From contig JAIETP010000005.1 in assembly GCA_019744975.1 (NCBI GenBank), positions 1-64,000 on the forward strand: DNA of 64,000 nt, in the 5' to 3' direction. Numbering within the stretch: position 1 is the first letter of the stretch; each line of letters opens with the position of its first letter. The position numbers and the translations under genes are program-made. The notes below the pieces were generated by a model. It was not told the origin of the DNA. It searched no databases and worked only from the letters and a program-made list of their open reading frames with translations. This stretch comes from Burkholderiales bacterium. Lineage in GTDB: Bacteria > Pseudomonadota > Gammaproteobacteria > Burkholderiales > SG8-41. Below, piece after piece: positions 1,488 through 60,314 of this stretch.

Positions 1488-2231
1488 TCACCGGTCCCCG
1501 GTTTTCCCCGCCAGCACTTCCGCCACATGCAGCACCTGCGTCTTTGCATCCCCGCGCCGGCGCAGCCGCCCTTCGATATTAAGCATGCAGCCCAAGTCAC
1601 CGAGCACCACGGCATCGGCGCCGCTGGCGGTGATGTTCTCGCACTTGCGTTCAGCGATATGCGCGGAGATGTCGCCGTACTTGATCGCGAAGGTGCCGCC
1701 GAATCCGCAGCACTGTTCGCATTCATTCATCTCGCGCAGTTCCGCGCCCTCGACCTGCGCCAGCAGCGCACGCGGCTGTTGTTTGATGCCGAGTTCGCGC
1801 AGCCCGGAGCAGGAATCATGGTAAGTATATGATTTTATTGATGATTTTGACTTGCCTGTGTAGCGCATAACATTCACCAGAAAATCGGTGAGTTCATAGC
1901 TGCGCTCTGCCAGCGCGCGCAATGCATCGCGCTCCGCTTCCGGCACGGCGTTCAGCAGATCGGGATAGTGGGTGCGCATCATGCCGGCGCAGGAACCCGA
2001 GGGCACGACGACATATTCACAATCGGCGAATTCCCGCGCCACCTTGCGTGCCAGCGCGACGGCTGAAGCGCGATCGCCGGAGTTGTAGCCGGGCTGGCCG
2101 CAGCAGGTCTGGGCTTCAGGCACGACAACTTCGCAACCCGCGGCCTGCAGCAACTCAAGCGCGGCGAAGCCGATGCGCGGGCGCATCAGATCGACGAGGC
2201 AGGTCACAAACAAACCGACGCGTATGGCCAT
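1488..2231 (-). CDS. LutA/YkgE-like (Fe-S)-binding protein with two CCG domains
   Basis: A 247-residue protein with two cysteine-rich CCG domains. The first has Cys11, a CCG at 43-45 (QTCCGQPGYNSGD) and GSCAG; the second has HDSCSG, EQCCGFGG and GCMLN. These match LutA, LldE and YkgE, subunits of L-lactate oxidation complexes and relatives of heterodisulfide and glycolate oxidase subunits. The partners LutB and LutC are not nearby, so the substrate is unproven. Its ATG overlaps the stop of the upstream lipoprotein hydrolase by one base (TAATG), implying translational coupling. Codons near 1821-1851 are AT-rich (residues KSSIKSYTY) and belong to a dispersed repeat family. Confidence 0.85.
   Translation of the reverse strand: MAIRVGLFVTCLVDLMRPRIGFAALELLQAAGCEVVVPEAQTCCGQPGYNSGDRASAVALARKVAREFADCEYVVVPSGSCAGMMRTHYPDLLNAVPEAERDALRALAERSYELTDFLVNVMRYTGKSKSSIKSYTYHDSCSGLRELGIKQQPRALLAQVEGAELREMNECEQCCGFGGTFAIKYGDISAHIAERKCENITASGADAVVLGDLGCMLNIEGRLRRRGDAKTQVLHVAEVLAGKTGDR
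1821..1851 (+). repeat. AT-rich patch, copy 1 (inside lutA-like gene)
   Basis: A close match to the recurring core aagtatttgattttattga, here with 'aagtatatgattttattga'. It lies within the coding region of the minus-strand LutA-like gene and reads in frame. Confidence 0.65.
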
Positions 2232-3250
2232 TATTGGTAGAGCCCCTGCTTCACCAGCCAGTCCTGGATCAGTCCGGCCACCTGATCACTGTTGCGATCC
2301 ATCATGATCATGTGCGAGTTGCCTTTGATACCCGCCTTGGGCAGGTCGATGACTTCGTACTTCGCACCGTGTTTGCCGGCCTCGGCGAGAAAACCCACGC
2401 CGTTGGCGCGAATTTTCGGCCAGCGCGCATCCTCTTCGATGTAATCGCCGTAGATGGCGAGCATGGGCACATTCTTCAGTTTTTCCACCTGCTTCCGATC
2501 GCCGACGCCGGCCGGCTCGACCAGCACCAGCGCCTTGACCTTGTCCGGCCGCGCCTGCGCCACCTTGAAACCAAAACTGCCGGACTGCGAATGCACGACG
2601 ATTGCGCAGGGGCAGACCTTGTCCACCAGTTCGGTGTAGGCCGCGACAATGGCGTCGTCAGTGGTGGTCCAGCGAGGCACACCCTGCTTGGTGAAATTGT
2701 CGTAACCCTCTTTCGGGAACTGGCTGCCCGGCATCAGTTTCATTTTTGCCGGATCCTTGTTGTAGGAACCGGCGCCCTGGCCGATGCGAAAACGCTCGAA
2801 GGGGTTTTCCTTGGTCAGGAACACCGGCTCGCCCTTGAACACGTCGGGATACATCGCCCAGCCGGAACGTCCACGCTCGACAGCGTCGGAGTTGAACACC
2901 GGCCAGCCGCGTTTGACGAAATAGTTGAGCCAGCCCTCGCGTCCGTCGGGCGTGGTTTCGTAGGTGACACCGGACAAACCACCGCCATGCCACAACAGCA
3001 AGGGCAGCGCGCCGCGTTTGTTTTGCGGAATGAAGTACTGCACATACATCTGCTCGACCTGGTAGACGCCGTTGGGATCGACCTTGGCCGGAACACCACC
3101 CGGCGTAAAGACGATCTCCCTGACCGGTTTCCCGGAAATCACGACTTCACGGCCACCAACATGGAACGAGCCCATTTTCTCCAGGGCAATCGGCGCCTGC
3201 GCACAACCCGCCAGCGCGACAGCCAGCACAACCGCAGTCTGTTTCAGCAT
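2231..3250 (-). CDS. Alpha/beta-hydrolase lipoprotein (esterase-like)
   Basis: A 339-residue alpha/beta hydrolase with a lipoprotein signal: MLKQTAVVLAVALAGC carries the lipobox LAGC, so a periplasmic or outer-membrane-anchored enzyme is expected. The oxyanion-type HGGG (LLWHGGGLSG) and nucleophile elbow HSQSG are visible, and a late GNSHM may supply the catalytic His. The start at 3250 has a strong GGAGG site; the frame continues upstream but without signal-like sequence. It is translationally coupled to the downstream LutA-like gene, suggesting one pathway, perhaps ester or lactone cleavage before oxidation. The substrate is unknown. Confidence 0.8.
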   Translation of the reverse strand: MLKQTAVVLAVALAGCAQAPIALEKMGSFHVGGREVVISGKPVREIVFTPGGVPAKVDPNGVYQVEQMYVQYFIPQNKRGALPLLLWHGGGLSGVTYETTPDGREGWLNYFVKRGWPVFNSDAVERGRSGWAMYPDVFKGEPVFLTKENPFERFRIGQGAGSYNKDPAKMKLMPGSQFPKEGYDNFTKQGVPRWTTTDDAIVAAYTELVDKVCPCAIVVHSQSGSFGFKVAQARPDKVKALVLVEPAGVGDRKQVEKLKNVPMLAIYGDYIEEDARWPKIRANGVGFLAEAGKHGAKYEVIDLPKAGIKGNSHMIMMDRNSDQVAGLIQDWLVKQGLYQ

Positions 3251-3330
3251 GATGGTTTCCTCCCTTGTTTGACCGGTGCGGTCAAACCTCCGGCGATGAT
3301 AATAACCCGACCGGCAACTGAATCTCCGCA

Positions 3331-3360
3331 CAAAAAGAAACCCCGGCCGCGGCCGGGGTT
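3331..3360 (-). terminator. Rho-independent terminator after the haemagglutinin gene
   Basis: A perfect palindrome (aaccccggcc/ggccggggtt, 3339-3360) is followed on the minus strand by a T-rich run. It lies 20 bases after the stop of the large exoprotein gene. Confidence 0.85.
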
Positions 3361-3380
3361 GCGATGACCGGGCGCCGGCG

Positions 3381-6300
3381 TTATTTGCAGACCGGCGCGT
3401 CTTTTTTCTTGTCGTCTTCGGTTTCCTTGAACACATCCTTGTCTTTTTCGGCCTCCGGCGGCTCGGTCGATTCACCCAGCGCAACAATCAGCGTCTGGGT
3501 CGGCACTTCCAGCGCTGCACCGCCAAACACCACACCACCGCCACCGTAGGTCACCTTCAGGCTGCTACCGAGTACCGCCGGCGAGCCGCCGGCGATGAAT
3601 CCGGTGCCGGTCGCGGCATCGTAAACCGTGCCCTCAACACCGTTGACGAAATATCCGCCGCTCTCGAGGTTGGGGAAGAGGACGTAAATGCTGGTTGGCG
3701 AAGTGGACTCGATGCTCGCGGAAGCGCCCGCGCCCGTGCCCGCGGTCATCTGGATCACACCGCCGACTTTCACCGGATTAACGGCACTCCCCACATCAGG
3801 CGAGCCTGAAATACGGGCAAAAGCATTCGGGCCGCTACCGCCAGTCAACGACACATTACCGCCCACCGTGATGCCCTGATTGACGCCAAAGATTCCGGCA
3901 GTGCCGCTGGAAACCATGCTGCCCTGCAGCGTCAGCGCGCCGCCAACGGAAATCGCCTGGGCAGCAACAGTATTCATGATGGCCGAGTTGAGCGTCGTAC
4001 CGGTCAGCGAAGCATTGCCGCCAACAATGATGGTCTGCGGAGAGCCGGTGGCGATGATCCCTGCGCCCATCAAATCAAGGTTGCCAGCGATCGACAGATT
4101 CTGGGGGGCAAGCGAGAAAATCTCGGCCTGATTGCCGCCGCCGGACAGCAAGGCACTGCCTCCCACCATGATATTTTGGGCGCCCGCCGTGCTGTTTTTA
4201 TATATATCCGCGCCATTGAGAAGCGTAAGGTTATTGCCGACATTGATATTCTGGTTGCTGGCACTGCTTGTATTAATCCGCCCCGAAGAAGTCAGCGTCA
4301 GGTCGTTGCCGACGGTTATGATCTGCGCGCCGCCGGTATTCACAAAACCGCTGTTGCTTACAAGAAAATCCCGTCCGGCATTAATGATCATGCTGCCGCT
4401 GCCGGTATTGAAATTGCTGGTCGCGGCATGCGTGATATCGCGGCCCGCCTGCAACAGCATCGTGCCGGAAGCAGTATTGATCTGGTTCGCACCCGCGCCG
4501 TGAACGATATCCCCGTCGGCTATCAGCGTCATGGCGCCGCTGCTGGTGTTGATCTGGCCGGTGCCCGATCCCGTATGCAGAATGTCGCGGGCCGCCTGCA
4601 ACCGCATCGCGCCGGAGGAAGTATTGATCTGGTTCGCACCCGCGCCGTGAATGATATCCCGTCCGGCTATCAGCGTCATGGCGCCGCTGCCCGTGTTGAT
4701 CTGGCTGGTGCCCGTTCCCGTATGCAGAATGTCGCGGCCCGCCTGCAACAGCATGGCACCGTTGCTGGTGTTGATTTGTTGCGCCCCAGTGCTGTGTACG
4801 ATGTCCTCCCCGGCAGTGAACATGATGGTTCCGGCGCCGCTGACACTGGCTCCAGCCGCACTTGTGTTCATGAAAATGCTGGAACCAGCAACCAGGGCAA
4901 TGTTGCCGCCGGTTGATGTACTGAGTGCGGCGGCCAGCGTCAGATTACCCGATGCCCGGTACTCGATGTTACCAAGGTAGGAACGATTGGCGGCCGGTAT
5001 GGTGTAGTCCCCGGTGCCACCGGTGTAGGACAGCACGGTATTCTCGAGAACGGTGGGGACATTGAGCGTCAGTGCGCCGATCTGATTGATGGTGGCGCCA
5101 CTGAATTTTCTCAGGCCCCCATGTACTTCCGACAGCACGAGAGTTGATCCCGCGCCGATATTGGTGATGCCGGCGAGAACATCCGCGTTCTGCATGGAGA
5201 GGGTAGTCGGGCCGGTAATGTTCAATACACCGGTGGCAGACTGGCGGTAAAGCGCTTCCCACGACGTGAGGCCGCCACTATTCACGTTGAAGGTACCCGC
5301 ATTATCAATCACACCATCCTGCACTCCCGGGGTACTGATGAACGACCAATTAATCGTAGACGGCGTAGTGATGTTGACAACACCCCCGGCGAGATTGTTG
5401 AACGTCGCCGGCCCGCTGTCACCCAGATCGACCTGACCGCTGATGTTCACCGCGCCTCCGTTGTTCCATATCTTGCTCGCCGGCAGCGCGACAAAACCGG
5501 TGATATTCGTGGTCGCAGTACTCGATGTAGTCAGTTGCCCGGCGCCACCGACCGTGCCGCCTGACCAGTTGAACAAGCCACCAAGCGCGACGTTCGCACT
5601 TCCGCCCAGCGTCCCGCCCGACAGGTTCAACGTGCCGGATAACATCGCCGGGCTATTGAAATTCAGCGTGCCGCCGGCGATCGTGGTCGTCCCCGAACTT
5701 CCGATGCCGTAACTGCCGCCGTTGATGTTCACCGTGCCGCCGGTGTAATGCGCCTGACCGGTGCCGGATACGTTGGATGTACCTGAAAGTGCCCGCGTGC
5801 CTGCGCTGAACTGCAGAATCGCGGGGGAAGTTACGGCATAAACACCATTGGTATCCGTACCACCGACGGCAATGTTCATCGTGCCGCCGTTGACGTTCAC
5901 GCTGCCGGAATTGTTGAACGCGTTGAGCACTGAAATGCCGGCGGTTCCCGGCGTATTCCAGTTGACAGTGCCGGAGTTGTTGAAGGTGTTCGTACCGCTG
6001 CCGGTGGAATCGACACCGATCGCGCTCGATGTGGTGACGTTGAAGGTATTGCTGTTGTTGAATGTCGCACCACTGTTGAGGGAAAAATGTCCACCGGTCA
6101 GCGATGCCGTGCCGGTGTTGTTCCAGACCCGGCCCTCTAGCCGGTGCGAGTTCGTGCCGGCACCCGACAGCGTCGAGGCGCCCGTCGTGGTGAATATGCC
6201 CGTGCCTGACAGGAAGCCCAGAGACGCGGTGGTATCCCAGTTGAAGGCACTGTTGACGGTGGTGTTGCCCGTGCCGGTGAGCGTGGCCCCACCGGACATG

Positions 6301-8063
6301 TTCAGTGTCCCTATCGAGAAATCCGAATTGATCGTGGCGGTACCCCCCGACAGGTTGACGGTTTTGCCGGCGGCATTGATGGTGCCGCCGTTGCCGTCCA
6401 GTGTCACCGTGCCCAGATTCACCGCGCCGCCGGGATTAAACACGATATTCAACGCGCCCGAAGTTGATGTGATGCTCGCATTGACGTCGATGTTGTTGTT
6501 CGCGTTGAAGGTCAGGCTCCGGGTAACCCCCGGCGCAGCCGTGATGGCGCTGCCAATGATGATATTTCCCGCATCGGCTCCGGCAACATTGGTATCCAGA
6601 ATCACGTTGCCACTATTCAGTGCGCCAACGATGGTTGACGCCGCGATTGTCGACGAGCCGACGGTCGGCTGGAAATTGGCGTCGGCTCCCGGATCAATAT
6701 CCAGAATGTTCAAATCGGTACTCGTCACCGTGATGTTCAGTGGGTCCAGCAGCCAGGTTCCACCCTGTCCCGCCGGAGCCGATATGTCCGGCGCCCGCGT
6801 CACGGCGAGATAACCCTTGCCCGACGTTTCGACAAATCCGCCATCGCCGCCTTGTGCGCCACCTCTTGCGGAAATATTGCCGTAGGAACGCGTCGCATCA
6901 TCCGCCCACACAATCACCCTGCCGCCATCACCCGCGGTGATCGCATCGGCATGGATGGTCACATCGGGTCCGACATAAGTGCGAAAGGCGTTCTGCACGT
7001 CGGGATTCCTGCCCTGGTAATCACCACCGACCAGCACCGTGCCGCCCTGGGTGTCGCCTGAAGCATCGATGTTGGCGTGGCCAGTCAGGCCGACCAGATT
7101 GCCCAGCACCTTGACTGTGCCGCCCGCCCCGGCGCTGCCGGTTGCAGCGATGTCGCCTTCAACGATCGTGGTGTCCCCCGCCTGGATGTCGATCCTGCCG
7201 CCGCTGGTGCCACTGACCGAAGTCTGGCTTCCTGCGGCAAGATGCACGTTTTTGCTCGCTTTCAGTACGATGCGACCGCCTTCAACCACCGCGCTGTCGG
7301 CACGCAGTGTGCCGCTGTTGTTGACCAGACCGGCGTAGATGCCGATGCGACCTGCATCCGCGGTAATGGCGCCGAGGTTCTTCGCTTCGTTGTCGGGCGC
7401 GACGATTTCAACACGCAGATTGGGCGTGCCCGGATTGACCAGTTCCACGCTGTTGCCCGCGGCAAGGATCACCTCGCCGTTCGGGCTTGTGATCAGGCCG
7501 TCGTTGCTGACGGCTTTGCCGATCAGGTAGACGCTGCCTCCGCTGATGCTGCCCTGATTCACCACGCTGCCGGCACCGGCGCCGTCGGTGAACTTCATGC
7601 GGTTGTTCAGGAAGTCGTCGTTGCTCAGGTTCAGCGTCGAGGCGACAAGGCCCGCAACGTTGATCTGCGCGTTCGCGCCGAAGACGATGCCGTTGGGGTT
7701 GATCAGGAACACGCGGCCATTCGATTGCAGCGCACCGAGAATCGCCGACGGGTCCTGACCGATCACGCGATTCAGCACCGCGGAGCTGCCCGACTGCTGG
7801 ATGAAGCGCGTCAGTTCATTGACGCCGATGGAGAACGAGCCCCAATTGATGATCGCGTTGGGACTGTTGGTGATGTTGAGAATGTTGCCGGCGGTGGAGA
7901 AACTCGCCGTGCCGTGCACCACCATCGGGTTGACCGGGTTGGCCCGCACTTCGTCAATCAATATCACGCCGCTGAAACAGGCTGCGACAGCGGTGGCCGC
8001 AGCAGTACGCCGCATAGTGAAGGCCCATTGAGCGGCTTTGTTTTTCTGCTGGTTCTGGTTCAT
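3381..8063 (-). CDS. Filamentous-haemagglutinin-type exoprotein (TpsA-like)
   Basis: A 1560-residue secreted beta-helix adhesin. The long signal region ends near Ala41 (DEVRA|NPVNP). It is followed by a two-partner-secretion domain with the hallmark INPNGIVFG (NPNGI at 122-126). The rest is Gly/Asn/Ser/Thr-rich helix repeats. Residues about 1070-1225 form seven 24-25-residue repeats (pattern SGAM-L-AGRDI-H-G-INTS), which alternate in two types to give a roughly 147-bp higher-order DNA repeat. The C-terminus changes to a charged tail (about EKDKDVFKETEDDKKKD) ending PVCK. No TpsB outer-membrane partner is adjacent, so export must use a distant transporter if the gene works. Its own terminator lies downstream. 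Confidence 0.9.
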   Translation of the reverse strand: MNQNQQKNKAAQWAFTMRRTAAATAVAACFSGVILIDEVRANPVNPMVVHGTASFSTAGNILNITNSPNAIINWGSFSIGVNELTRFIQQSGSSAVLNRVIGQDPSAILGALQSNGRVFLINPNGIVFGANAQINVAGLVASTLNLSNDDFLNNRMKFTDGAGAGSVVNQGSISGGSVYLIGKAVSNDGLITSPNGEVILAAGNSVELVNPGTPNLRVEIVAPDNEAKNLGAITADAGRIGIYAGLVNNSGTLRADSAVVEGGRIVLKASKNVHLAAGSQTSVSGTSGGRIDIQAGDTTIVEGDIAATGSAGAGGTVKVLGNLVGLTGHANIDASGDTQGGTVLVGGDYQGRNPDVQNAFRTYVGPDVTIHADAITAGDGGRVIVWADDATRSYGNISARGGAQGGDGGFVETSGKGYLAVTRAPDISAPAGQGGTWLLDPLNITVTSTDLNILDIDPGADANFQPTVGSSTIAASTIVGALNSGNVILDTNVAGADAGNIIIGSAITAAPGVTRSLTFNANNNIDVNASITSTSGALNIVFNPGGAVNLGTVTLDGNGGTINAAGKTVNLSGGTATINSDFSIGTLNMSGGATLTGTGNTTVNSAFNWDTTASLGFLSGTGIFTTTGASTLSGAGTNSHRLEGRVWNNTGTASLTGGHFSLNSGATFNNSNTFNVTTSSAIGVDSTGSGTNTFNNSGTVNWNTPGTAGISVLNAFNNSGSVNVNGGTMNIAVGGTDTNGVYAVTSPAILQFSAGTRALSGTSNVSGTGQAHYTGGTVNINGGSYGIGSSGTTTIAGGTLNFNSPAMLSGTLNLSGGTLGGSANVALGGLFNWSGGTVGGAGQLTTSSTATTNITGFVALPASKIWNNGGAVNISGQVDLGDSGPATFNNLAGGVVNITTPSTINWSFISTPGVQDGVIDNAGTFNVNSGGLTSWEALYRQSATGVLNITGPTTLSMQNADVLAGITNIGAGSTLVLSEVHGGLRKFSGATINQIGALTLNVPTVLENTVLSYTGGTGDYTIPAANRSYLGNIEYRASGNLTLAAALSTSTGGNIALVAGSSIFMNTSAAGASVSGAGTIMFTAGEDIVHSTGAQQINTSNGAMLLQAGRDILHTGTGTSQINTGSGAMTLIAGRDIIHGAGANQINTSSGAMRLQAARDILHTGSGTGQINTSSGAMTLIADGDIVHGAGANQINTASGTMLLQAGRDITHAATSNFNTGSGSMIINAGRDFLVSNSGFVNTGGAQIITVGNDLTLTSSGRINTSSASNQNINVGNNLTLLNGADIYKNSTAGAQNIMVGGSALLSGGGNQAEIFSLAPQNLSIAGNLDLMGAGIIATGSPQTIIVGGNASLTGTTLNSAIMNTVAAQAISVGGALTLQGSMVSSGTAGIFGVNQGITVGGNVSLTGGSGPNAFARISGSPDVGSAVNPVKVGGVIQMTAGTGAGASASIESTSPTSIYVLFPNLESGGYFVNGVEGTVYDAATGTGFIAGGSPAVLGSSLKVTYGGGGVVFGGAALEVPTQTLIVALGESTEPPEAEKDKDVFKETEDDKKKDAPVCK
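4390..4850 (-). repeat. In-gene tandem repeats of the haemagglutinin
   Basis: Seven tandem units of 72-75 bp encode SGAM-L-AGRDI-H-type repeats. Alternating units are more alike, for example 4530-4605 against 4678-4755, which points to duplication of pairs. Such arrays can change copy number and are prone to collapse during assembly. Confidence 0.8.
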
Positions 8064-8266: not shown

Positions 8267-8302
8267 AATAATATATTCAATAAAATCAAATACTTATAAA
8301 TA
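8267..8302 (-). repeat. AT-rich patch, copy 2
   Basis: The minus strand reads aagtatttgattttattga followed by atatatt. It starts about 25 bases after the stop of the HtrA-like gene and is in the same sense. Confidence 0.8.
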
Positions 8303-8326: not shown

Positions 8327-9298
8327 TCACACCATATGCCACGGCCGCAGATAGGACAGCCGGTCGCTGGTCTGTACGATCAGGTGTTTGACCACCTTGT
8401 CGCGAACGATGTGCAGCGTGACGTCGCTGCCGGCACTGCTGGACCACAGGCTTTCGTAGAACTCGCTCTGGCTGCCGATGGAATCGCCGCCGATGCCGAG
8501 GATGATGTCCCCACGTTTCAGGCCGGACTGGTCGGCCGGCGAATCAGGCAGCACGCGCGTGACCACCAGATGCCCGTCAACCTGTTCGGTGTTCAGCCCC
8601 AGCCAGGGGCGCGCGGCGCCGCGGCGGCGGCCGTCACGCACCAGGTCGTCGAGCACATCCTTCAGCAGATTGATCGGCACGAACATGTTGCCGGGAAACG
8701 CGACGCCGGCATTGAGCGCATCGCTGACCCACAACGAAGCAATGCCGACCAGCCGGCCGTGGCCGTCGAACAGCGCTGCACCGCTGTGTTCATAACGCGG
8801 CGGCGCGGTGAACAGCGCGTCGTCGATCATGTATTCCCACCAGCCGATGAAGCGGCGCCGCGACACCAGCGCGGCACCGGTGACGCCGCCGGCGCCGGCA
8901 TGGCCGGCAACGACCAGACTTTGCAGTTCACCGAGATTGCTGGAGTCGCCGAGTTCCACCGGTGCGCAGGGCGGCGGCGGCGAAGCCCGCAACAAACCAA
9001 AACCGGTGGCATGGTCAAAACCGACGACACTGGCCGGATAAATCCTGTTGTCGCCGGTCATCACCAGTATTGATGCCGCTTCCAGCACCAGGTAACCGAT
9101 GGTCAGGATCAGGCCGTTGCTGTCAATGACGATGCCGGTGCCCTCGCGCTCGGCACCCAGCGTGTCCGCCGTGCGCGCGCCATCCACCGCGCGGATGGAG
9201 AGTTTGACCACCGCGTCGAGCGGCGGCGTGATCGGTCGCGGGATGCTGTTGGTGGCACGCCAGGCGGCGACGGATGCGGCGAACAGCGAAGCGGTCAT
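8327..9298 (-). CDS. HtrA/DegP-like protein with degenerate catalytic triad, PDZ domain
   Basis: A 323-residue protein with trypsin-like (S1C) and PDZ domains in HtrA order. Against the DegP pattern, the His motif TNNHV reads TIGYL (His replaced by Tyr69), the Asp motif reads ATGFGLL (Asp replaced by Gly99), and the Ser motif GNSGG reads EHSGA, with Ser172 kept. Proteolysis is therefore unlikely; a chaperone or binding role through the PDZ domain (about 230-310, PWLGL to VRD) is more plausible. A hydrophobic N-terminus (MTASLFAASVAAW) may be a weak signal. The ATG overlaps the greB stop (ATGA), so the two genes are co-translated. Confidence 0.8.
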   Translation of the reverse strand: MTASLFAASVAAWRATNSIPRPITPPLDAVVKLSIRAVDGARTADTLGAEREGTGIVIDSNGLILTIGYLVLEAASILVMTGDNRIYPASVVGFDHATGFGLLRASPPPPCAPVELGDSSNLGELQSLVVAGHAGAGGVTGAALVSRRRFIGWWEYMIDDALFTAPPRYEHSGAALFDGHGRLVGIASLWVSDALNAGVAFPGNMFVPINLLKDVLDDLVRDGRRRGAARPWLGLNTEQVDGHLVVTRVLPDSPADQSGLKRGDIILGIGGDSIGSQSEFYESLWSSSAGSDVTLHIVRDKVVKHLIVQTSDRLSYLRPWHMV

Positions 9299-13526: not shown

Positions 13527-13549
13527 GATAAGTCATTGATTCTTATCGG
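13527..13549 (+). repeat. AT-rich patch, degenerate copy 3
   Basis: gataagtcattgattcttat resembles the recurrent core in outline (TAAGT, TTGATT, TTAT) and lies just upstream of the DUF3567 gene. Membership is uncertain. Confidence 0.35.
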
Positions 13550-13564
13550 AAAATTATAAAAAAC

Positions 13565-13589
13565 TCCAATAAAAACAATAGCTTGTAAA
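13565..13589 (-). repeat. AT-rich patch, copy 4
   Basis: The minus strand reads aagctattgtttttattgga. It lies about 55 bases beyond the DMT transporter stop, in the same sense. Confidence 0.7.
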
Positions 13590-14641: not shown

Positions 14642-16078
<1,437 letters not shown>

Positions 16079-23115: not shown

Positions 23116-23200
23116 GCCGGGATGGCGGAATTGGTAGACGCACGGGACTCAAAATCCCGCGCCGCAAGGCGTGCCGGTTCGATTCCGGCTTCCGGCACCA
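23116..23200 (+). tRNA. tRNA-Leu (anticodon CAA)
   Basis: An 85-nt gene with encoded CCA. The acceptor stem pairs gccggga with ttccggc. The D-loop has TTGGTAGAC, the anticodon stem-loop is cggga-ctcaaaa-tcccg giving CAA, a long variable arm follows, and the T-loop is GGTTCGATTCC. It stands alone between queA and panC. Confidence 0.97.
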
Positions 23201-27933: not shown

Positions 27934-27976
27934 GCTCAGTTCAGACAGCTCATTTCAGACTGCTCAGTTCAGACTA
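27934..27976. repeat. 14-bp tandem repeat (gctcagttcagact x3)
   Basis: Three consecutive units of about 14 bases (gctcagttcagaca, gctcatttcagact, gctcagttcagact). The array ends inside the last codons of the HAD phosphatase, providing its terminal SLN and stop. Confidence 0.85.
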
Positions 27977-28620
27977 ATTATCGGCCAGCCACGCGCTTCG
28001 GCGTGTGCGCGCAGCGCGGCATCGGGATCCACGGCCACCGGATGGCCAACCTGCTCCAGCAACGGCAGGTCGTTATGGGAATCACTATAAAATGTTGATT
28101 TTAAAGAGTTTTTTAAAGAAACCCCGCGCCCGGCCAACCATGCCTCCAGGCGTTCGACCTTACCCTCGCGGAAACACGGCGTACCGCTGACACCACCGGT
28201 GAACACGCCGTCGCGCACCTCGGGTTCGGTGGCAATCAGGTGCTCGATGCCGAAGGCGCGCGCAATCGGCGCGGTGACGAAACTGTTGGTCGCGGTAATG
28301 ATCACCCGCAGCTCGCCGCGATGTTTGTCAACCAGCGCGCGAGCCGAATCGCGGATCATCGGCAGGATGCGCTCCCTCATGTATTCGCCATGCCAGGCAT
28401 CCAGCACCGTACGCGGATACTGCGACAGCGGTTTCAGCTGGAAATCGAGGAACTCGTAAATATCGAGCGTGCCCGCCTTGTACTGGTCGTAGAAGGCCTG
28501 GTTGCGCGCTTCGTAGTTTTTGCGGTCAAGCACGCCGCGGTCGATCAGAAATTGCGCCCATTCAAAGTCGCTGTCGCCGGCGAGCAGCGTGTTGTCGAGA
28601 TCAAACAAGGCCAGGTTCAT
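27964..28620 (-). CDS. HAD-IB family phosphatase (SerB-like)
   Basis: A 218-residue HAD hydrolase. Motif I is LALFDLDNTLLAGDSD, motif II is VIITATNSFVTAPIARAFG, and the motif III/IV region is FYSDSHNDLPLLEQVG. This betaproteobacterial subgroup is related to phosphoserine phosphatases; the substrate is unproven. The stretch LKNSLKST before FYSDS is encoded by an AT-rich patch (28087-28118) and is unlike the surrounding GC-rich codons. The C-terminal residues come from a 14-bp tandem array. Confidence 0.87.
   Translation of the reverse strand: MNLALFDLDNTLLAGDSDFEWAQFLIDRGVLDRKNYEARNQAFYDQYKAGTLDIYEFLDFQLKPLSQYPRTVLDAWHGEYMRERILPMIRDSARALVDKHRGELRVIITATNSFVTAPIARAFGIEHLIATEPEVRDGVFTGGVSGTPCFREGKVERLEAWLAGRGVSLKNSLKSTFYSDSHNDLPLLEQVGHPVAVDPDAALRAHAEARGWPIISLN
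28087..28118 (+). repeat. AT-rich patch, copy 6 (inside HAD gene)
   Basis: ttgattttaaagagttttttaaa matches the longer form of the family (ttgattttattgatatttttaat, as at 60291) at about 18 of 23 positions. It lies within coding sequence of the minus-strand gene without breaking the frame. Confidence 0.55.
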
Positions 28621-28642: not shown

Positions 28643-29326
28643 TCAGTTGCGCGGCAACGCCGCCTGCAGCAGTTCGCGCGCCAGCGGTACGGTGATCGCG
28701 CGTTTTTGTTCGAGTGACAGGCGGTCCAGGGTATCGACCAGCGCGCGCAGCGAACTGAGGTCGCGCGGCGCGCGCGACAGCAGGTAATCAGTCACCTCTG
28801 CCGGCAATTCGAAACCGCGGGCCCGGGCATAACTATGCACTGCTGCGCGGCGGTCATCCTCACTCAGTGCACGCACTTCATATACCAGCCCCCAGGCCAG
28901 GCGCGTCAGCAGGTCCGGGCGCAAAGCCAGACGCGCCGGCGGCACATCGCCGGCCACCAGCAGCATGCCGGATGACTCCTTCAAGCTATTGTATATATTG
29001 AATAATTCAATCTGCGCTGGCGGCGGCAATTGCTGCACATCATCGACGGCAATGGCATCTGTCGCCGCAATCGCAGCAGCGGCCGGCGGATCATCAGAGG
29101 CATGGAAGCGCGCAACACGGCCGGCGCCCTGCCACTCGCGCAGCACTGCGCGCAACAAATGCGTACGCCCGCTGCCGCTGCCGCCCCACAGATAAACAAA
29201 ACGTTCGCCAGCGCCGCCGCGCGCCAGCGCGCGGACTGCGGCAAGGACTTCCGCATTTTCCCCGACAACAAAATTGTCCAGCGTCGGCGCCGGCGGCGAT
29301 GCCAGTTCGAATGCCAGCTGCTTCAT
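28643..29326 (-). CDS. hda: DnaA regulatory inactivator Hda
   Basis: A 227-residue DnaA-like AAA+ protein lacking the DNA-binding domain. With the DNA-loaded clamp it stimulates ATP hydrolysis by DnaA and limits re-initiation. The N-terminal clamp-binding motif KQLAFEL and Walker A-like [12 protein letters not shown] are visible, with VDDVQQLP as Walker B. The segment [10 protein letters not shown] is encoded by AT-rich codons of the dispersed patch family. It is transcribed divergently from purM. Confidence 0.92.
28982..29010 (+). repeat. AT-rich patch, copy 7 (inside hda)
   Basis: aagctattgtatatattgaa followed by taattcaa matches the aagctattgtttttattga variant seen on the minus strand at 13565-13589. 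It lies in coding sequence of the minus-strand hda gene. Confidence 0.5.
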
Positions 29327-35739: not shown

Positions 35740-36900
35740 ATGTATACAGGGATTCTGGATTTACCGTGGTGGGGCTACGTGGTTTACGCGCTGGTCGTCA
35801 CCCATATCACCATTGCCGCGGTGACAATTTATCTGCACCGGCACTCTGCCCACCGTGCGCTGGATCTGCACCCGATCGTGGCGCATTTTTTCCGCTTCTG
35901 GCTGTGGCTGACCACCGGCATGCTGACCAAACACTGGACCGCCATCCACCGCAAACACCACGCCAAGTGTGAAACGGTTGACGATCCGCACAGCCCGCAG
36001 ATTTTCGGCATCCGCAAGGTGCTGATGGAAGGCGCAGAGCTATATCGCGTGGAAGGCCGCAACAAGGACACGCTGGAGCGTTACGGCTACGGCACGCCTG
36101 ACGACTGGCTGGAGCGCAATATCTACCGCCACGACCGTTATGGCATCGCCATCATGCTGATCACCAACGTGATCCTGCTCGGACCGATCGGCATCACCAT
36201 CTTTGCGGTACAGATGCTGTGGATTCCCTTCCTGGCCGCCGGCGTCATCAACGGCATCGGCCACTATTGGGGATATCGCAACTTCCAACCCGAAGACGCC
36301 AGCAGGAACATCATTCCCTGGGGCATCCTGGTCGGCGGCGAGGAACTGCACAACAACCATCACGCCTATGCGACATCGGCGAAACTGTCGAATCGCTGGT
36401 ATGAGTTCGACATCGGCTGGTTGTATATCCGCATCCTTGAGACCTTCGGGCTGGCGCATGTCAAGAAAATCGCCCCCAAACTGGTTCTCGACAGCTCCAA
36501 AACCAGCTGCGATCTGGCCACGCTGCAGGCGGTAGTGACCCATCGTTACGAGGTTGTGTCGAAATACGCCGCCTCGCTGCGCGCCACCTGCGCGCAGGAA
36601 CTGCAGACGCTCAAAGGCAAGGCTGCGGACGTCGATACCGGCAAGCTGAAACGCTGGCTGCACATCGACAAAACGGCTCTTCCCGCCGCGGAACTGGAGC
36701 AGCGTGAAGCGACCATCAAGCAGAGCACCGTGCTGACCACCGTCTACAACATGCGCGATGAACTGGCACAGCTGTGGCAGCGCTCGACGGCATCCAAGGA
36801 ACAACTGGTGAAACAGCTTGAAGACTGGTGCCACCGTGCCGAGAACAGCGGCATCGAGGCGCTGGAGCAGTTCTCGCGCAGACTGCGCTGCTACGCTTGA
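35740..36900 (+). CDS. Membrane fatty acid (acyl-CoA) desaturase
   Basis: A 386-residue desaturase of the delta-9 type. The three histidine boxes that bind the di-iron centre are HRHSAHRALDLHP, HRKHHAKCE and NNHHAYATSAK, separated by four hydrophobic segments. It adds a double bond to saturated acyl chains at the membrane. A helical, charged C-terminal part of about 130 residues follows the last box. It is a single gene with a terminator downstream. Confidence 0.92.
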   Translation: MYTGILDLPWWGYVVYALVVTHITIAAVTIYLHRHSAHRALDLHPIVAHFFRFWLWLTTGMLTKHWTAIHRKHHAKCETVDDPHSPQIFGIRKVLMEGAELYRVEGRNKDTLERYGYGTPDDWLERNIYRHDRYGIAIMLITNVILLGPIGITIFAVQMLWIPFLAAGVINGIGHYWGYRNFQPEDASRNIIPWGILVGGEELHNNHHAYATSAKLSNRWYEFDIGWLYIRILETFGLAHVKKIAPKLVLDSSKTSCDLATLQAVVTHRYEVVSKYAASLRATCAQELQTLKGKAADVDTGKLKRWLHIDKTALPAAELEQREATIKQSTVLTTVYNMRDELAQLWQRSTASKEQLVKQLEDWCHRAENSGIEALEQFSRRLRCYA

Positions 36901-37587: not shown

Positions 37588-37620
37588 AATTATTTCAATA
37601 AAAACAAATACTTACAATAA
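37588..37620 (-). repeat. AT-rich patch, copy 9
   Basis: The minus strand reads aagtatttgtttttattgaa followed by ataatt. It begins at the radC stop codon and has the same sense as radC. Confidence 0.8.
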
Positions 37621-38286
37621 TCCACGCTCGGCAAACGACAAGGCACCGTCGCCGGCGACAACAAAATGATCGAGTACGCGCACATCCACCATGGCCAGCG
37701 CCTGTTTCAGCGCCGCAGTGAGCGCCTCATCGGCACGACTGGGCTCCGCAACGCCCGAGGGATGGTTATGGGCAAATATCACCGCCGCAGCGTTGTAATG
37801 CAGGGCGCGTTTGACCACTTCGCGCGGATAGACGCTGGTCTGGGTCAAGGTACCGCGGAACAACTCTTCGCAGGCCGTCACGCGATGCTGGGCATCAAGA
37901 AACACCACGACAAACACCTCGTGAGGACGACCGTGCAAGGTGAGTCGCAGATAATCGCGCACTGCCCCAGGAGCCGACAGCGCGGCGCCGGCATCGAGTT
38001 TTTCGCGCAGCGTGCGCCGCGCGATTTCCAGCGCCGCCTGCAACTGGGCGTATTTGGCCGGGCCCAGGCCCGGCTCGGCACAGAAGGATTCATTGGCGGC
38101 CCCGGCCAGGGCGGACAGTGAGCCGAAACGGGTCAACTGATCGCGCGCCAGTTCCACCGCGGTTTTACCCTTGATGCCGGTACGCAGGAAAATCGCCACC
38201 AGTTCGGCATCCGACAGGCTCTGCGGCCCCTTGGCCAGCAGTTTCTCGCGGGGGCGTTCGTCCAGCGGCCAGTCGGTGATTGCCAT
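37612..38286 (-). CDS. radC: RadC family JAMM/DUF2466 protein
   Basis: A 224-residue RadC-like protein. An N-terminal helix-hairpin-helix part ([28 protein letters not shown]) is followed by the JAMM metal-binding motif [15 protein letters not shown]. The metallo-isopeptidase fold is certain; the biological role is debated. The start at 38286 has GGAG nine bases upstream. The last codons and stop fall in AT-rich patch 9. Confidence 0.9.
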
Positions 38287-38331
38287 TGCAGCATGCTCCG
38301 GGTTGATCATTAAAGAACGCGCCGGCCCGCC

Positions 38332-45192: not shown

Positions 45193-46209
45193 TTACGGAT
45201 GACAGAGACTGAACGCCCCGGCCAGCAACTCGTAGGAACGCAGCCGCGAGTCGTAATCGCCGGTGATGGTGATCACCATCAGTTCATCGGCCTCGAACTC
45301 CGCTTGGATTTCCAGCAGTCGTTGTTTGACGACATCCGGCGTGCCGAGCACCACGCGCCGCCGGTGATGCTGGGTGATGCGCCGGCGGTCGGCGTCAGTG
45401 TACGGATAGGACTCGGCCTCTTCCAGCGTCGGCACCGGCGCGTTCACCCCGTAATCCATGTTCAGCCGGCGCAGGTCCACGCTTTGCGCCAGCCGCTCCG
45501 CCTGCGCCTGCGTGTCGGCGCAGATCACGAACACACAGACCAGCGCCTGCGGTTGCGGCTCGCGCGCGGAGGGTTGATAGCGGCGTTTGAAATCGCGCAT
45601 CACCACGTCGCCGCCGCGCGCGCTGATGAAATGCGCGAACGCAAAACGCAGTCCGAGCTGCGCCGCCAGCGCACCGCTGTAATCCGAGGAACCGAGCAGC
45701 CAGATCTGCGGACTGGTGTCGCCCGCGGGCTGCGCCCGGACCTGGCGGAACGGATGACCTTCGGGCAGATCATCGTCGAGGTAGGCCGCGAGGTACTGCA
45801 CCTGCTCGGGAAAATCATCCGCCGACGGATAACGGCCCTGGCCCATTGCCATCGCAGTGGCCTGATCGCCGCCGGGCGCGCGGCCGATGCCGAGGTCGAT
45901 GCGCCCCGGAAACAGGGCCTCAAGCATGCGGAACTGTTCAGCAATTTTCAGCGGACTGTAATACGGCAGCAACACGCCGCCGGTGCCGACGCGAATGGTC
46001 GTCGTCGCCGCTGCCAGCCGCGTCACGAGGATTTCCGGGCAGGGATCGGCCAGCGCCATGATCGAGTGATGTTCCGCGCACCAGTAGCGGTGATAACCCA
46101 TCGCCTCCGCCGCCTGCGCCAGACGCAGGGTTTGCTGTATCGCCTGCTGCGGGGTGTGGCCGCTGATGATCGGGGACTGGTCAAGGACGCTGAGTTTGAT
46201 GGTTGTCAT
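45193..46209 (-). CDS. LLM-class flavin-dependent oxidoreductase
   Basis: A 338-residue bacterial-luciferase-like TIM-barrel protein (LSVLDQSPIISGHTPQQAIQ, WCAEHHSIMALADPCPEILVTRLAAATTTIRVGTGGVLLPYYSPLKIAEQF, RIDLGIGRAPGG). It resembles the YhbW/MsnO8 group that uses FMN. The substrate is unknown. Confidence 0.9.
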   Translation of the reverse strand: MTTIKLSVLDQSPIISGHTPQQAIQQTLRLAQAAEAMGYHRYWCAEHHSIMALADPCPEILVTRLAAATTTIRVGTGGVLLPYYSPLKIAEQFRMLEALFPGRIDLGIGRAPGGDQATAMAMGQGRYPSADDFPEQVQYLAAYLDDDLPEGHPFRQVRAQPAGDTSPQIWLLGSSDYSGALAAQLGLRFAFAHFISARGGDVVMRDFKRRYQPSAREPQPQALVCVFVICADTQAQAERLAQSVDLRRLNMDYGVNAPVPTLEEAESYPYTDADRRRITQHHRRRVVLGTPDVVKQRLLEIQAEFEADELMVITITGDYDSRLRSYELLAGAFSLCHP

Positions 46210-55016: not shown

Positions 55017-55175
55017 TGTACAACTCCGCCTCTTCGGACGAAATGAACGGGGCAACGGCCGTGCACCGTCAACAGTAGCACCAAAAAATCTGCGCGGATA
55101 TCTCCTGCAGCTCAAATCATGCACACGATACGTGTATTTTCATAATGCTAAGATCAGGAAAAATCAGGAGACAAA

Positions 55176-57322: not shown

Positions 57323-57353
57323 CGTTTTCGATCAGCAAACTTTTGGGCACCCT

Positions 57354-57480: not shown

Positions 57481-57495
57481 GACACTGCGGCCTTG

Positions 57496-57780: not shown

Positions 57781-57791
57781 GATCATTCCTT

Positions 57792-57881
57792 TCAGTGATA
57801 GTCCTCATAATCGACAACATCCTGAATTACCAGCGCTTCGTTCTTGCGAGTCCGGCGACACGCAATCGTTAGGTGGATCGC
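57792..57881 (-). pseudogene. Possible toxin-gene 3' remnant upstream of higA
   Basis: An open stretch of about 29 codons ends [16 protein letters not shown] and stops 11 bases before the antitoxin start, the position where a higB stop would be. It has no usual start codon and is closed on the other side by the stop of the 57882 gene. The VDY-DYH ending recalls RelE/HigB C-termini but the match is weak. Confidence 0.3.
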
Positions 57882-58484
57882 TCACTTGTGATGAATCCAG
57901 GCAAGGGTGGCTGCTTGTGGTTTCAGCAACGCGGCGTGGATGCGAACTCTATATCCTCGCCAATCAATCAACTCGTCCAGTACAGAGCCATTCGGCGGAA
58001 CTGCCAGACCCAATCTAACAAAATCGACACCCAACCCAACCGAATAATTTACATCAGGTGTGGCCACGGACAAAAATCTTACACGATCTGGACGACGCGG
58101 AATGCCCGCAAGAGAAAGTTCGCTCACGGGTTTAAAAACGAATCGAATCCAAGGAACAATTCCATCTTGGCTAAGCATTATCTGTAGGTCAGCAATACCT
58201 TCATACAGTGCCCTGCTCCCATTTGCTTTGAGGTGGAAATAAATGGGTGGATGAAACGTTAGATGTGGATTCCGGATCGGTCTCAGCGTACTCGGATCTG
58301 ACCGAATCAGGTACTCCACGGCGACGCGGTTGTACGCATTCCAAACATTGTTTTTTGCATTGAAGTTCGGCGAAACAAACGTCTTGTCATGCAGTCCCAC
58401 GGAAATTGAACCATCGGGCTGAAAACTTACCCAACCGATCCGTCTTGGTTTTACTCCATCGGTCGCGGTAAGAAGAACTTCCAC
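57882..58484 (-). CDS. Unknown protein in AT-richer islet
   Basis: A 200-residue protein that I do not recognise. It has no signal, membrane segment or cysteine motif. Features are an N-terminal GWVSFQPDGSISVGLHDKTFVSPNF, a central HPPIYFHLKANGSRALYEG and a C-terminal basic RGYRVRIHAALLKPQ. Codon use and base composition are clearly AT-richer than its neighbours, pointing to transfer. The likely start is GTG at 58484. It lies upstream of the HigA-like gene on the same strand. Confidence 0.6.
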   Translation of the reverse strand: MEVLLTATDGVKPRRIGWVSFQPDGSISVGLHDKTFVSPNFNAKNNVWNAYNRVAVEYLIRSDPSTLRPIRNPHLTFHPPIYFHLKANGSRALYEGIADLQIMLSQDGIVPWIRFVFKPVSELSLAGIPRRPDRVRFLSVATPDVNYSVGLGVDFVRLGLAVPPNGSVLDELIDWRGYRVRIHAALLKPQAATLAWIHHK

Positions 58485-58500
58485 TAGCTACCTAACACGT

Positions 58501-58520
58501 AGTAATTGATATTTTTAGTT
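58501..58520 (+). repeat. AT-rich patch, partial copy 12
   Basis: agtaattgatatttttagtt matches only the second half of copies 11 and 14 (attgatatttttaat). Confidence 0.5.
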
Positions 58521-58590
58521 GACGTCTTGCACCCGGTCAGTACGCATCATAACCAGTTCCCCGCAAGCGGCCGTCCACCTGGGTCTTCTC

Positions 58591-58622
58591 ATAAAATAAT
58601 AAACAAAATCAAATATTTACTT
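58591..58622 (-). repeat. AT-rich patch, copy 13
   Basis: The minus strand reads aaatatttgattttgtttat followed by tatttta. It lies about 95 bases before phoD. With copy 14 it brackets phoD in opposite orientation. Confidence 0.75.
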
Positions 58623-58716
58623 GAATTCCCGGTTGAGCCCGCAAAAACACATTCACCCACCAGCAATCACCCGCTGTAGTCCCCCGGTCACGCTGCCGCG
58701 TTAAGCTCCACACACC

Positions 58717-60276
58717 ATGCACAACACCCGCCGCAGTTTCCTGCTCCGCAGCGCCGCCCTCTCCGCCGCACTGGCCTTGCCGTCACAGCGCGTCATCGCC
58801 CAGCCGCGTTTTACACAGAATCCCTTCTCACTGGGTGTCGCTTCCGGTTACCCGCAACCGGACGCAGCCGTGCTGTGGACACGGCTCGCACCCGATCCGC
58901 TGAACGGCGGCGGCATGCCGGAGGCGCCTGTAGCAGTGCGCTGGGAGATTGCCGCCGATGCGCGTTTCAGCAAAATCGTTGATCGCGGTGAAGTGCTTGC
59001 CACGCCACAGTTCGCGCATGCGGTGCATGTGTCGGCGCGCGGGCTGGAACCCTCGCGCTGGTACTGGTACCGCTTCATGGCCGGCGACGCAGTCAGCGCC
59101 ACCGGCCGCACGCGTACTGCGCCGGCCGCCGACGATGCACGCGGCAAGCTGGCGTTTGCCATTGCCTCCTGCCAGCACTATGAACACGGCCACTACGCGG
59201 CTTATCGCGACATGGCGCAGCAGCAACTCGATTTCGTGGTCCATGTCGGTGATTACATTTACGAGGGTTCCTGGGGCCGGCGCGACCGCGTGGTGCGCGA
59301 ACATCACACAGCGGAACCCTATACGCTGGCCGATTACCGCAACCGTTATGCGCAATACAAACTCGACCCCAACCTGCAGGCCGCACACGCCGCCTGCCCC
59401 TGGCTGGTGACCTGGGATGACCACGAAGTCGACAACGATTACGCCCGCGACCGTTCGCAGGACATGGACCCGGTCGATGCCTTTCTCTTGCGCCGCGCCG
59501 CGGCCTACCAGGCCTGGTACGAACACATGCCGCTGCCGCCGGGCACATATGCCGGCGGGCCGGACATGAAGATTTACGCCACGCATGTGATGGGCAATCT
59601 CGCGCGCATCCAGCTGCTCGACATGCGCCAGTACCGCGATTACCACGTCTGCCCGCGCCAGGGCCGCAAGGCCGGCGGCAACCAGGTCAATGTGCTGGAA
59701 TGTCCGGAACTGAAGCAAGCGGGCCGCTCATTGCTCGGCAGCACACAGGAACAATGGCTGGAAAATGCACTGGCGCAATCCACGGCGCGCTGGAACATCA
59801 TCGCGCAGACCACGCTGATGGGCCAGGCCGACCGCGGCGCCGACAACGAACGCGTGGTCTATACCGACGGCTGGGACGGTTATCCGGTGGCGCGCGAAAA
59901 ACTGCTGCGTTTCATCGCCGAACGCAAAATCCGCAACCCGGTGGTCATCGGCGGCGATGTGCATTTTTCAATGGCGGGCGAACTGAAACTGGATTTTGAC
60001 AATGAACGCTCTCCGGTCATCGCCAGTGAATTTGTCTGCACCTCGATTTCATCATTCGGCCCGAGCCGTGCGCGGATCGAGGCGCTGCTCGCCAAAAATC
60101 CGCATGTGAAATTCGCCAACGGTGCGCGCCGCGGTTACGCGAAATTCGAAGTCACGCCGCAGCGCTGGGAGACTTCATTCCGAGCTGTGGTCGATGTTGC
60201 CGATGCGCAGTCGAAAGTGTACGAACTGGGGCAATACGTGGTGGAGGACCGCCGGCCCGGGCCGCAGCGCGGGTAA
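58717..60276 (+). CDS. phoD: PhoD-like alkaline phosphatase/phosphodiesterase
   Basis: A 519-residue enzyme with a twin-arginine signal (NTRRSFLLRSAALSAALALPSQRVIA). The PhoD fold is shown by FSLGVASGYPQPDAAVLWTRL, the metal sites FAIASCQHYEHGHYAAYRDMA, HVGDYIYEG, VTWDDHEVDNDYA and NPVVIGGDVHFSM. PhoD enzymes release phosphate from phosphomonoesters and diesters in the periplasm and use Ca and Fe. It stands alone; no Pho box was evident. Confidence 0.92.
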   Translation: MHNTRRSFLLRSAALSAALALPSQRVIAQPRFTQNPFSLGVASGYPQPDAAVLWTRLAPDPLNGGGMPEAPVAVRWEIAADARFSKIVDRGEVLATPQFAHAVHVSARGLEPSRWYWYRFMAGDAVSATGRTRTAPAADDARGKLAFAIASCQHYEHGHYAAYRDMAQQQLDFVVHVGDYIYEGSWGRRDRVVREHHTAEPYTLADYRNRYAQYKLDPNLQAAHAACPWLVTWDDHEVDNDYARDRSQDMDPVDAFLLRRAAAYQAWYEHMPLPPGTYAGGPDMKIYATHVMGNLARIQLLDMRQYRDYHVCPRQGRKAGGNQVNVLECPELKQAGRSLLGSTQEQWLENALAQSTARWNIIAQTTLMGQADRGADNERVVYTDGWDGYPVAREKLLRFIAERKIRNPVVIGGDVHFSMAGELKLDFDNERSPVIASEFVCTSISSFGPSRARIEALLAKNPHVKFANGARRGYAKFEVTPQRWETSFRAVVDVADAQSKVYELGQYVVEDRRPGPQRG

Positions 60277-60280
60277 GTTT

Positions 60281-60314
60281 ATATAAGTATTTGATTTTAT
60301 TGATATTTTTAATA
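60281..60314 (+). repeat. AT-rich patch, copy 14
   Basis: aagtatttgattttattgat followed by atttttaat, starting five bases after the phoD stop and in the same sense. With copy 11 it is the best example of the full-length element. Confidence 0.9.

What the first reader, a model, noticed from the sequence alone, without database searches (positions are those of the whole stretch)
1821..60314. Dispersed family of AT-rich ~30-bp patches (about 14 sites) in a GC-rich chromosome
Core aagtatttgattttattga, often continued as atttttaat or ataatt, recurs at 1821, 8267(-), 16118, 37588(-), 49692, 58591(-) and 60281. The variant aag[ct]nattgtttttattgaa occurs at 13565(-), 35598(-), 45101(-) and 28982, with weaker copies at 13527, 28087, 58501 and possibly 20673. 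Most lie within 60 bases of a stop codon and, in six of eight clear intergenic cases (8267, 13565, 16118, 37588, 45101, 60281), share the sense of the gene just ended. There is no strong dyad, so it is neither a REP nor a standard terminator. It could be a mobile micro-element, a U-rich 3'-end signal or a nucleoid-protein site.
Basis: seen in the sequence. Interest (0 to 1): 0.8.

Follow-up and report, generated by a model that had tools for sequence, protein, structure and literature searches.

The report
Evenly spaced genome-wide IHF-site grid
The AT-rich patches look like strong landing sites for the DNA-bending protein IHF; hundreds of them, spaced more evenly than chance and often kept at the same places in related species, dot this bacterium's chromosome, many at gene ends, and they probably help to fold it.

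Summary
A weight matrix finds 13 sites in the window and 124 in 864 kb of the genome; the reversed-sequence control finds 4. The core plus T-tract is an IHF site: YAANNNNYTG[A/T]T[A/T] in 107 of 124 sites, with the A-tract placed as at lambda H'. The extraordinary part is number and upkeep. In one family, three genera carry 46-760 copies (one genome, G066, 6); outside it, one of 387 genomes in the order is rich. Sites persist at orthologous loci in 42 of 55 tests against 0 of 82 controls. Spacing is more even than random (mean 6.4 kb, CV 0.66 against 0.96). They favour gene 3' ends and avoid divergent spacers. One site inside a gene replaced a protein segment, without net insertion in 13 of 18 genomes, which argues against a mobile element. 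The sense bias is not upheld (37 of 65). No HU was found in any of the 38 genomes of the family with 9 or more copies, but HU loss is not sufficient. Best reading: a selected grid of IHF sites with an architectural role. Uptake sequence is a serious rival; no binding data exist.

The parts
1822..1848 (+). IHF-like site inside a CCG-domain gene (1488-2231, minus strand); position 7 decayed (ATG for TTG)
   Evidence: PWM 25.9 bits; same place in 10 of 10 genus relatives tested and, same strand, in g3, 8 of 9 g9 and 1 of 3 g2 genomes with the gene
8270..8296 (-). IHF-like site, exact 20-base core, 43 bp after the stop of 8327-9298
   Evidence: site above 9 bits in 6 of 16 relatives
13529..13555 (+). 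IHF-like site (weak here), facing the next one
   Evidence: PWM 13.4 bits; a site (this one or its partner) in 16 of 16 relatives
13559..13585 (-). IHF-like site, partner of the former, between EamA and DUF3567 genes
   Evidence: PWM 27.5 bits
16119..16145 (+). IHF-like site between the ends of convergent genes, downstream of a purB-like gene (14690-16078)
   Evidence: PWM 28.0 bits; 10 of 13 relatives
28088..28114 (+). IHF-like site inside an HAD-type gene (27964-28620, minus strand)
   Evidence: PWM 18.4 bits, exact YAANNNNTTGATW
28982..29008 (+). IHF-like site inside an Hda-like gene (28643-29326, minus strand)
   Evidence: PWM 16.8 bits
35597..35623 (-). IHF-like site after a mechanosensitive-channel gene (opposite sense)
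   Evidence: PWM 23.1 bits
37588..37614 (-). IHF-like site 10 bp after the radC-like gene (37612-38310)
   Evidence: PWM 29.6 bits
45102..45128 (-). IHF-like site between 45193-46209 and the psiF-like gene
   Evidence: PWM 24.6 bits
49698..49724 (+). IHF-like site 48 bp after the tannase-like gene (opposite sense)
   Evidence: PWM 28.7 bits
58593..58619 (-). IHF-like site in a long divergent spacer
   Evidence: PWM 22.7 bits
60284..60310 (+). IHF-like site, exact core plus full T-tract, 20 bp after the PhoD-like gene
   Evidence: PWM 32.5 bits, the best in the window

Best explanation
Each patch is a high-affinity binding site for the IHF heterodimer: the half-sites YAA and YTG[A/T]TT separated by four free bases, with an A/T-tract about one helical turn away that wraps the second arm. 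IHF would fold the DNA back on itself at each site. The genome carries roughly 500 of them (extrapolated), spaced more evenly than chance, many just behind genes, and kept in place by selection. The most likely role is architectural: fixing where supercoiled loops have their ends, so that bends and supercoil barriers lie at gene ends and not in promoters, in a genome in which no HU was found and IHF is the only member of its protein family seen. Shown: motif, numbers, placement, spacing, conservation, IHF genes present, no HU found. Inferred: that IHF binds them in vivo, and the architectural role.
For: Motif: 107 of 124 own sites fit YAANNNNYTG[A/T]T[A/T], 123 within one mismatch, with 39 different spacers; published consensus WATCARnnnnTTR, TAAnnnnTTGATW, and WAWCAAC in unsynchronised E. 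coli (passages of PMC8407004); most of the strongest IHF sites carry an A-tract on that side (passages of PMC9519438); same geometry in lambda attP. In G064 and G062, 14 of 35 sites have C at the position where the consensus allows R/Y. Footprint over 24 comparisons (rows chosen with the matrix): YAA and TTG 0.75-1.00, spacer 0.38-0.75, flanks 0.25-0.75. Own IhfA and IhfB present; a same-genus IhfA and a g2 IhfB match IHF structures 1ihf at 2e-40 and 3.5e-34. Conservation 42 of 55 against 0 of 82. Even spacing. Divergent spacers hold 8 of 89 intergenic sites, 25 expected; 46 of 65 tandem sites nearer the stop. No HU found in the 38 genomes of the family with 9 or more copies. IHF pins plectonemes and bridges DNA in simulations (abstract and passages of PMC9519438).
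Against: No binding data. Only 49 of 124 sites carry the classical A at position 10; 58 carry T. HU loss is neither sufficient nor clearly necessary: g4 (4 of 5) and g6 (4 of 4) show no HU and have at most 1 copy; 18 of 387 genomes elsewhere in the order (8 of them under 90% complete) show no HU and no enrichment; the independently rich G842 keeps a divergent HU-like match. IHF proteins barely differ between rich and poor genera, so they do not explain the spread. Even spacing, lack of polarity and a coding share of 34 in 123 also fit uptake sequences (PMC1939737 passages). Conservation is not complete: the 8.3-kb site is found in only 6 of 16 relatives.
Confidence: 0.62

Rival explanations
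1. DNA uptake sequence: a self-recognition tag for natural transformation that builds up by biased uptake and recombination, as in Neisseriaceae and Pasteurellaceae; the IHF match would be chance, or the uptake machinery prefers bent DNA.
For: Hundreds of lineage-specific copies, even spacing, both strands about equal, 34 of 123 in coding sequence, replacement without net insertion in most rows of one gene; uptake sequences show such features (passages of PMC1939737).
Against: The motif and its tolerated variation follow the IHF consensus, spacer and A-tract; orthologous positions are largely kept; avoidance of divergent spacers has no obvious reason; the same code is dense in a second, distant family.
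Confidence: 0.1
2. Ordinary regulatory IHF sites: the lineage simply has a very large IHF regulon, each site acting on a nearby promoter.
For: IHF consensus; many sites lie in spacers that could also hold the next gene's promoter; a site is kept upstream of a DUF3567 gene in 16 of 16 relatives.
Against: Divergent spacers are depleted (8 of 89, 25 expected), convergent spacers are used (16), tandem sites lie nearer the stop (46 of 65), 34 are in coding sequence, and spacing is even.
Confidence: 0.17
3. U-rich transcript 3'-end signal without a hairpin.
For: Median distance of site centre from stop codon 36 bp in tandem spacers.
Against: No strand preference (37 of 65), 28 of 34 coding sites antisense, no GC-rich hairpin in six sites folded, conserved half-sites with a free spacer.
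Confidence: 0.04
4. Mobile micro-element copied around the genome.
For: Many similar copies in spacers.
Against: Orthologous copies kept across a genus and at one gene across genera; no net insertion at that gene in 8 of 8 g1 rows, G003 and four of eight site-bearing g9 genomes; identity between relatives falls to flank level outside a footprint of about 27 bases.
Confidence: 0.02
5. Sites of another, lineage-specific DNA-binding protein that shares much of the IHF code.
For: T at position 10 in about half the sites is unusual for the classical consensus; the presence pattern is lineage-specific.
Against: The consensus from unsynchronised E. coli also shows W there (PMC8407004 passages); IHF is present and conserved. 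No other candidate was sought.
Confidence: 0.05

Closest known systems
IHF sites of the lambda attP H' type
   Same: Half-sites, four-base spacer and A/T-tract at the same distance
   Different: Here about 500 copies genome-wide (extrapolated), evenly spaced; position 10 is A or T
REP/BIME families (including E. coli RIB/RIP elements that bind IHF, as recalled)
   Same: Hundreds of copies, extragenic bias towards gene ends, avoidance of divergent spacers (REP side as recalled)
   Different: No palindrome, footprint of about 27 bases only, largely kept orthologous positions, 34 of 123 inside genes
DNA uptake sequences (DUS/USS)
   Same: Dispersed, evenly spaced, no polarity, in coding and non-coding DNA (PMC1939737 passages); built here without net insertion in most rows of the one gene examined
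   Different: Motif is IHF's; competence not examined
Correia/NEMIS elements with an IHF site in Neisseria
   Same: Repeats of which one form carries an IHF site (passages of PMC2229807)
   Different: Those are mobile elements of about 105-155 bp; here only the site itself is conserved

Membership tests
IHF binding site | consensus WATCARNNNNTTR (reverse YAANNNNYTGATW) | tested here: met
   49 of 124 strict, 107 of 124 with A or T at one position, 123 of 124 within one mismatch of that
IHF binding site | A-tract on the WATCAR side at the H' distance | tested here: met
   T fraction 0.57-0.85 at +22 to +26; lambda T-tract at +21 to +26
IHF binding site | genome encodes IhfA and IhfB with conserved DNA-binding arms | tested here: met
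   L193 and L194; close relatives' arms align with IHF of known structure
IHF binding site | bound and bent by IHF | not testable with these tools
   needs gel shift, footprint or ChIP
REP/BIME | imperfect palindrome | tested here: not met
   asymmetric matrix; of six folded sites only the 13.5-kb pair has a notable (AU-rich) stem, z -2.33
DNA uptake sequence | many dispersed, evenly spaced, non-polar copies | tested here: met
DNA uptake sequence | natural competence and preferential uptake | not tested
   competence genes not searched; uptake needs an experiment
MITE or other mobile element | insertion of extra bases against empty sites | tested here: not met
   CCG-domain gene: no net indel in 13 of 18 site-bearing rows, extra codons beside it in 5; only one locus examined at this level
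Intrinsic terminator | GC-rich hairpin before a U-run, in the sense of the gene | tested here: not met
   six sites folded; 37 of 65 in the genes' sense

The most novel reading that the evidence does not exclude
A clade of HU-less betaproteobacteria runs its chromosome on a sequence-addressed scaffold: an inherited, evenly spaced grid of hundreds of IHF sites at gene ends sets loop and supercoil boundaries, took over what unspecific HU does elsewhere, arose a second time in a Gallionellales genome, and was important enough to overwrite residues of a conserved protein.
Probability: 0.33. Interest if true: 0.87.

Novelty: new variant of a known kind. Interest (0 to 1): 0.68.

Why it matters
Nucleoid-associated proteins are usually thought to act with loose specificity, and whether bacterial chromosomes carry fixed folding addresses is open. 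A grid of hundreds of strong, largely conserved, evenly spaced IHF sites in genomes without a detectable HU would make this testable: positions are known, predictions are sharp (IHF peaks, loop boundaries, supercoil barriers at gene ends), and near relatives without the grid serve as controls.

Tried and rejected
A weight matrix against the genome's own base composition drifted into plain AT-richness (3,172 overlapping hits) and was replaced by one scored against an AT-rich background. The Markov and reversed controls use a matrix trained on the same sites; the independent evidence for excess is, the fresh 400 kb (61 sites, 4 reversed). My first reading of HU loss as the driver was weakened: loss is neither sufficient nor clearly necessary. 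The family association (9 or more copies in 38 of 52 genomes without HU against 0 of 22 with it) is not phylogenetically independent (tree). Two of the 52 (G013, G063) gave no match to the protein family at all, and several others are incomplete, so their HU status is only inferred. IHF co-evolution was looked for and not seen. One search did not reverse minus-strand loci; one search repeats it with orientation: beyond g1 a site within 300 bp downstream of purB occurs in 1 of 25 genomes (G002), but five g3/g9 genomes share a site 880-905 bp downstream, same strand. The footprint is biased by choosing relatives' sites with the matrix; one search repeats presence or absence by position. Gene calls come from a simple codon-bias caller of my own, so starts are approximate. 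The spacing null ignores spacer type. Competence genes were not searched. Papers: search listings 34, 44, 53, 54, 55, 64 and 67 (63 returned none); passages of PMC8407004, PMC9519438, PMC1939737, PMC2229807 and PMC5683647 (the last not useful). In these listings I saw no description of such a grid; the library is open-access only.
Full report
WHAT IS THERE. The two consensus forms are in the window as described, 7 matches each at up to 3 mismatches against at most 0.01 expected. The genome (G000, 3,685,515 bases) holds 130 + 119 copies of TAAGTATTTGATTTTATTGA at up to 3 mismatches and none of the backward pattern. A weight matrix made on the window plus 20 evenly picked 20-kb stretches finds 63 sites in 464 kb, with none at the same cut-off on the reversed sequences and 0.6 on Markov copies. 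A further 400 kb gives 61, with 4 reversed: 124 in 864 kb, about 530 per genome by extrapolation.

WHAT IT IS. Reading the matrix from the core's first T: Y A A, four freer bases, T T G, A or T, T T, an A/T-rich run, and a T-tract at +22 to +26. This is the reverse complement of the IHF consensus WATCARNNNNTTR with its A-tract. Of 124 sites, 49 fit YAANNNNYTGATW, 107 fit it with A or T at position 10, and 123 fit that with one mismatch; 39 different spacers occur, GTAT in 43. The lambda attP region (J02459, L233) shows three consensus matches, and in one, which I recall as H', the T-tract lies at +21 to +26. The matrix itself does not score the lambda sites above 9 bits (best 1.6): the likeness is in half-sites and geometry, not in the whole 35-base string. 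Passages of PMC8407004 give TAAnnnnTTGATW and, from unsynchronised E. coli cells, WAWCAAC, which allows A or T at the same position. Passages of PMC9519438 state that most of the strongest sites have an A-tract on that side. In G064 and G062, 14 of 35 sites have C at position 7, the place of R in WATCAR.

THE PROTEIN. The window's genome has two matches to the DNA-binding family PF00216: IhfA (L193, 98.9% to another genus member) and IhfB (L194, 96.8% to a g2 relative). Those relatives' IhfA and IhfB match IHF of known structure (1ihf_A at 2e-40, 1ihf_B at 3.5e-34; that 1ihf is from E. coli is recalled). An HU query (L163) finds in G000 only these two, at 2.1e-14 and 1.2e-12, where HU matches of the family score 3.4e-25 or better.

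DISTRIBUTION. Family f1 (74 genomes): genus g1 46-249 copies, g3 288, g9 57-760 except G066 (6), g2 9-18, g4 to g8 at most 6. Class sample (369 genomes, up to 2 mismatches): at most 3 outside the window's own genome. Order sample (399 genomes): outside f1 only G842 is rich (183), all others at most 8. A looser IHF plus A-tract pattern over the same 399 gives 63-1,195 in the 12 f1 genomes (controls 2-14) and 304 in G842 (control 9); in the other 386 the largest excess over control is 75, in G628 (89 against 14). So HU-less f1 genomes that are poor by the strict core (G002 191, G049 63, G066 66) are raised by the looser one; g4, g6 and the HU-bearing genera were not in that sample, and 40-120 kb samples of five of their genomes (G007, G034, G044, G055, G054) gave 0-3 matrix sites each. 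The window thus most likely lies in an uncultured betaproteobacterium; this is inference. A purB plus CCG-gene tree of 26 genomes joins g1 with g9, g3 and G066 (support 0.991; the latter three together 0.998); G066's place inside is unsupported (0.217). One origin in f1 and one in G842 would suffice.

PLACEMENT. On 864 kb: 89 sites between genes in 99 kb of spacer, 34 inside genes, 1 at an edge. Divergent spacers hold 8 (25 expected, p = 1e-5), convergent 16, tandem 65. Of the 65, 46 lie nearer the stop than the next start (p = 0.001), median 36 bp from the stop; 37 share the genes' sense (p = 0.32). Inside genes, 28 of 34 run antisense; by my reading of the consensus the antisense strand has two open frames of three and hydrophilic residues, which is probably why. 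On 464 kb of contiguous sequence (68 intervals, sites within 150 bp merged) the spacing has mean 6.4 kb and CV 0.66; random placement with the same coding and non-coding numbers gives 0.96 +/- 0.11, 0 of 2,000 as even.

EVOLUTION. In 20 orthologous stretches of 17 genus relatives, the matrix hits all fell at or near the window's own site positions. By position, the in-gene site is present in 10 of 10 relatives tested, the 13.5-kb pair in 16 of 16 (at least one of the pair), the purB-downstream site in 10 of 13, the 8.3-kb site in 6 of 16. In total 42 of 55, against 0 of 82 for 3' ends of six other genes. The in-gene site recurs at the same place and strand in G003 (g2), G004 (g3) and 8 of 9 g9 genomes with the gene, and is absent from G001, G002, G066 and all 10 genomes of g4 to g8 with the gene. 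Where it is absent the segment mostly reads like PGRFDGTVTYHDS; where present, like SKISIKTITYHDS: the DNA site stands in place of other residues with no net insertion in 13 of 18 site-bearing rows (G004, G060, G062, G064 and G073 have extra codons beside it or in it). Within the site, wobble positions 2, 8, 11, 14 and 17 are identical to the window in 10 of 10 relatives (5, 20 and 23: 0.7, 0.9, 0.8), while outside they range from 0.1 to 1.0. Downstream of purB, five g3/g9 genomes share another site at 880-905 bp, same strand.

HOW IT MOST LIKELY WORKS. IHF binds each site and folds DNA sharply; simulations in PMC9519438 show that it pins plectoneme apices and that bridging isolates topological domains (abstract and passages). 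Evenly spaced sites behind genes, out of divergent spacers, would fix loop ends where they disturb transcription least. Within f1, no HU was found in the 38 genomes with 9 or more copies, and none of 22 HU-bearing genomes has more than 1 copy. But 14 f1 genomes without HU have fewer than 9 copies, 18 of 387 other order genomes show no HU and no enrichment (G847, at 2.8e-17, set aside), and G842 keeps a divergent HU-like match (4.4e-24, six family matches). HU loss may have permitted the grid; it does not by itself produce it.

RIVALS. Uptake sequences share even spacing, lack of polarity, coding share and build-up without insertion (PMC1939737 passages); the IHF code, its tolerated variation and the avoidance of divergent spacers speak against. 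Ordinary IHF regulation explains part of the sites at best. Terminator and mobile element are disfavoured.

LIMITS. No binding, expression or contact data; unnamed, partly incomplete genomes; approximate gene calls; the spacing null ignores spacer type; family statistics are not phylogenetically independent; replacement without insertion was examined at one gene only; the literature library is open-access only.

Noticed in passing
window 35740-36900: Reading frame with a fatty-acid desaturase domain followed by an ISL3 transposase domain: a possible gene-transposase chimera.
   Followed up: no
G000 and family f1: No HU was found in the 21 g1 genomes or in g2, g3, g6 and g9, while g5 (1 of 1), 12 of 15 g7 and 8 of 10 g8 genomes have it, G050 in part only.
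   Followed up: partly
G842 (L202-L208; L042, L055 and others): A Gallionellales MAG outside the family carries 183 copies of the same core at up to 3 mismatches, with A at position 10 in most sites and six matches to the HU query.
   Followed up: partly
L249, L240, L241, L242, L243: Five g3/g9 genomes share a site 880-905 bp downstream of purB on the same strand: another kept position, different from that of g1.
   Followed up: no
window 28982-29008: One site lies inside an Hda-like gene, a regulator of replication initiation by recalled function.
   Followed up: no
L353 (G066:C113) and L364 (G034:C28): Extra divergent IHF-like paralogues (57% to IhfB, 63% to IhfA) in two genomes without HU and without the dense grid.
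   Followed up: no
L046, L063, L067 and other loci: Records titled Bordetella parapertussis; three of these genomes were counted and their motif counts equal family members G028, G069 and G004, so they are probably mislabelled environmental MAGs.
   Followed up: no
window 3381-8063: A 1,560-residue protein with a TPS secretion domain, likely a two-partner-secretion exoprotein.
   Followed up: no
window 23116-23197: A tRNA gene, the only Rfam match in the window at gathering scores.
   Followed up: no
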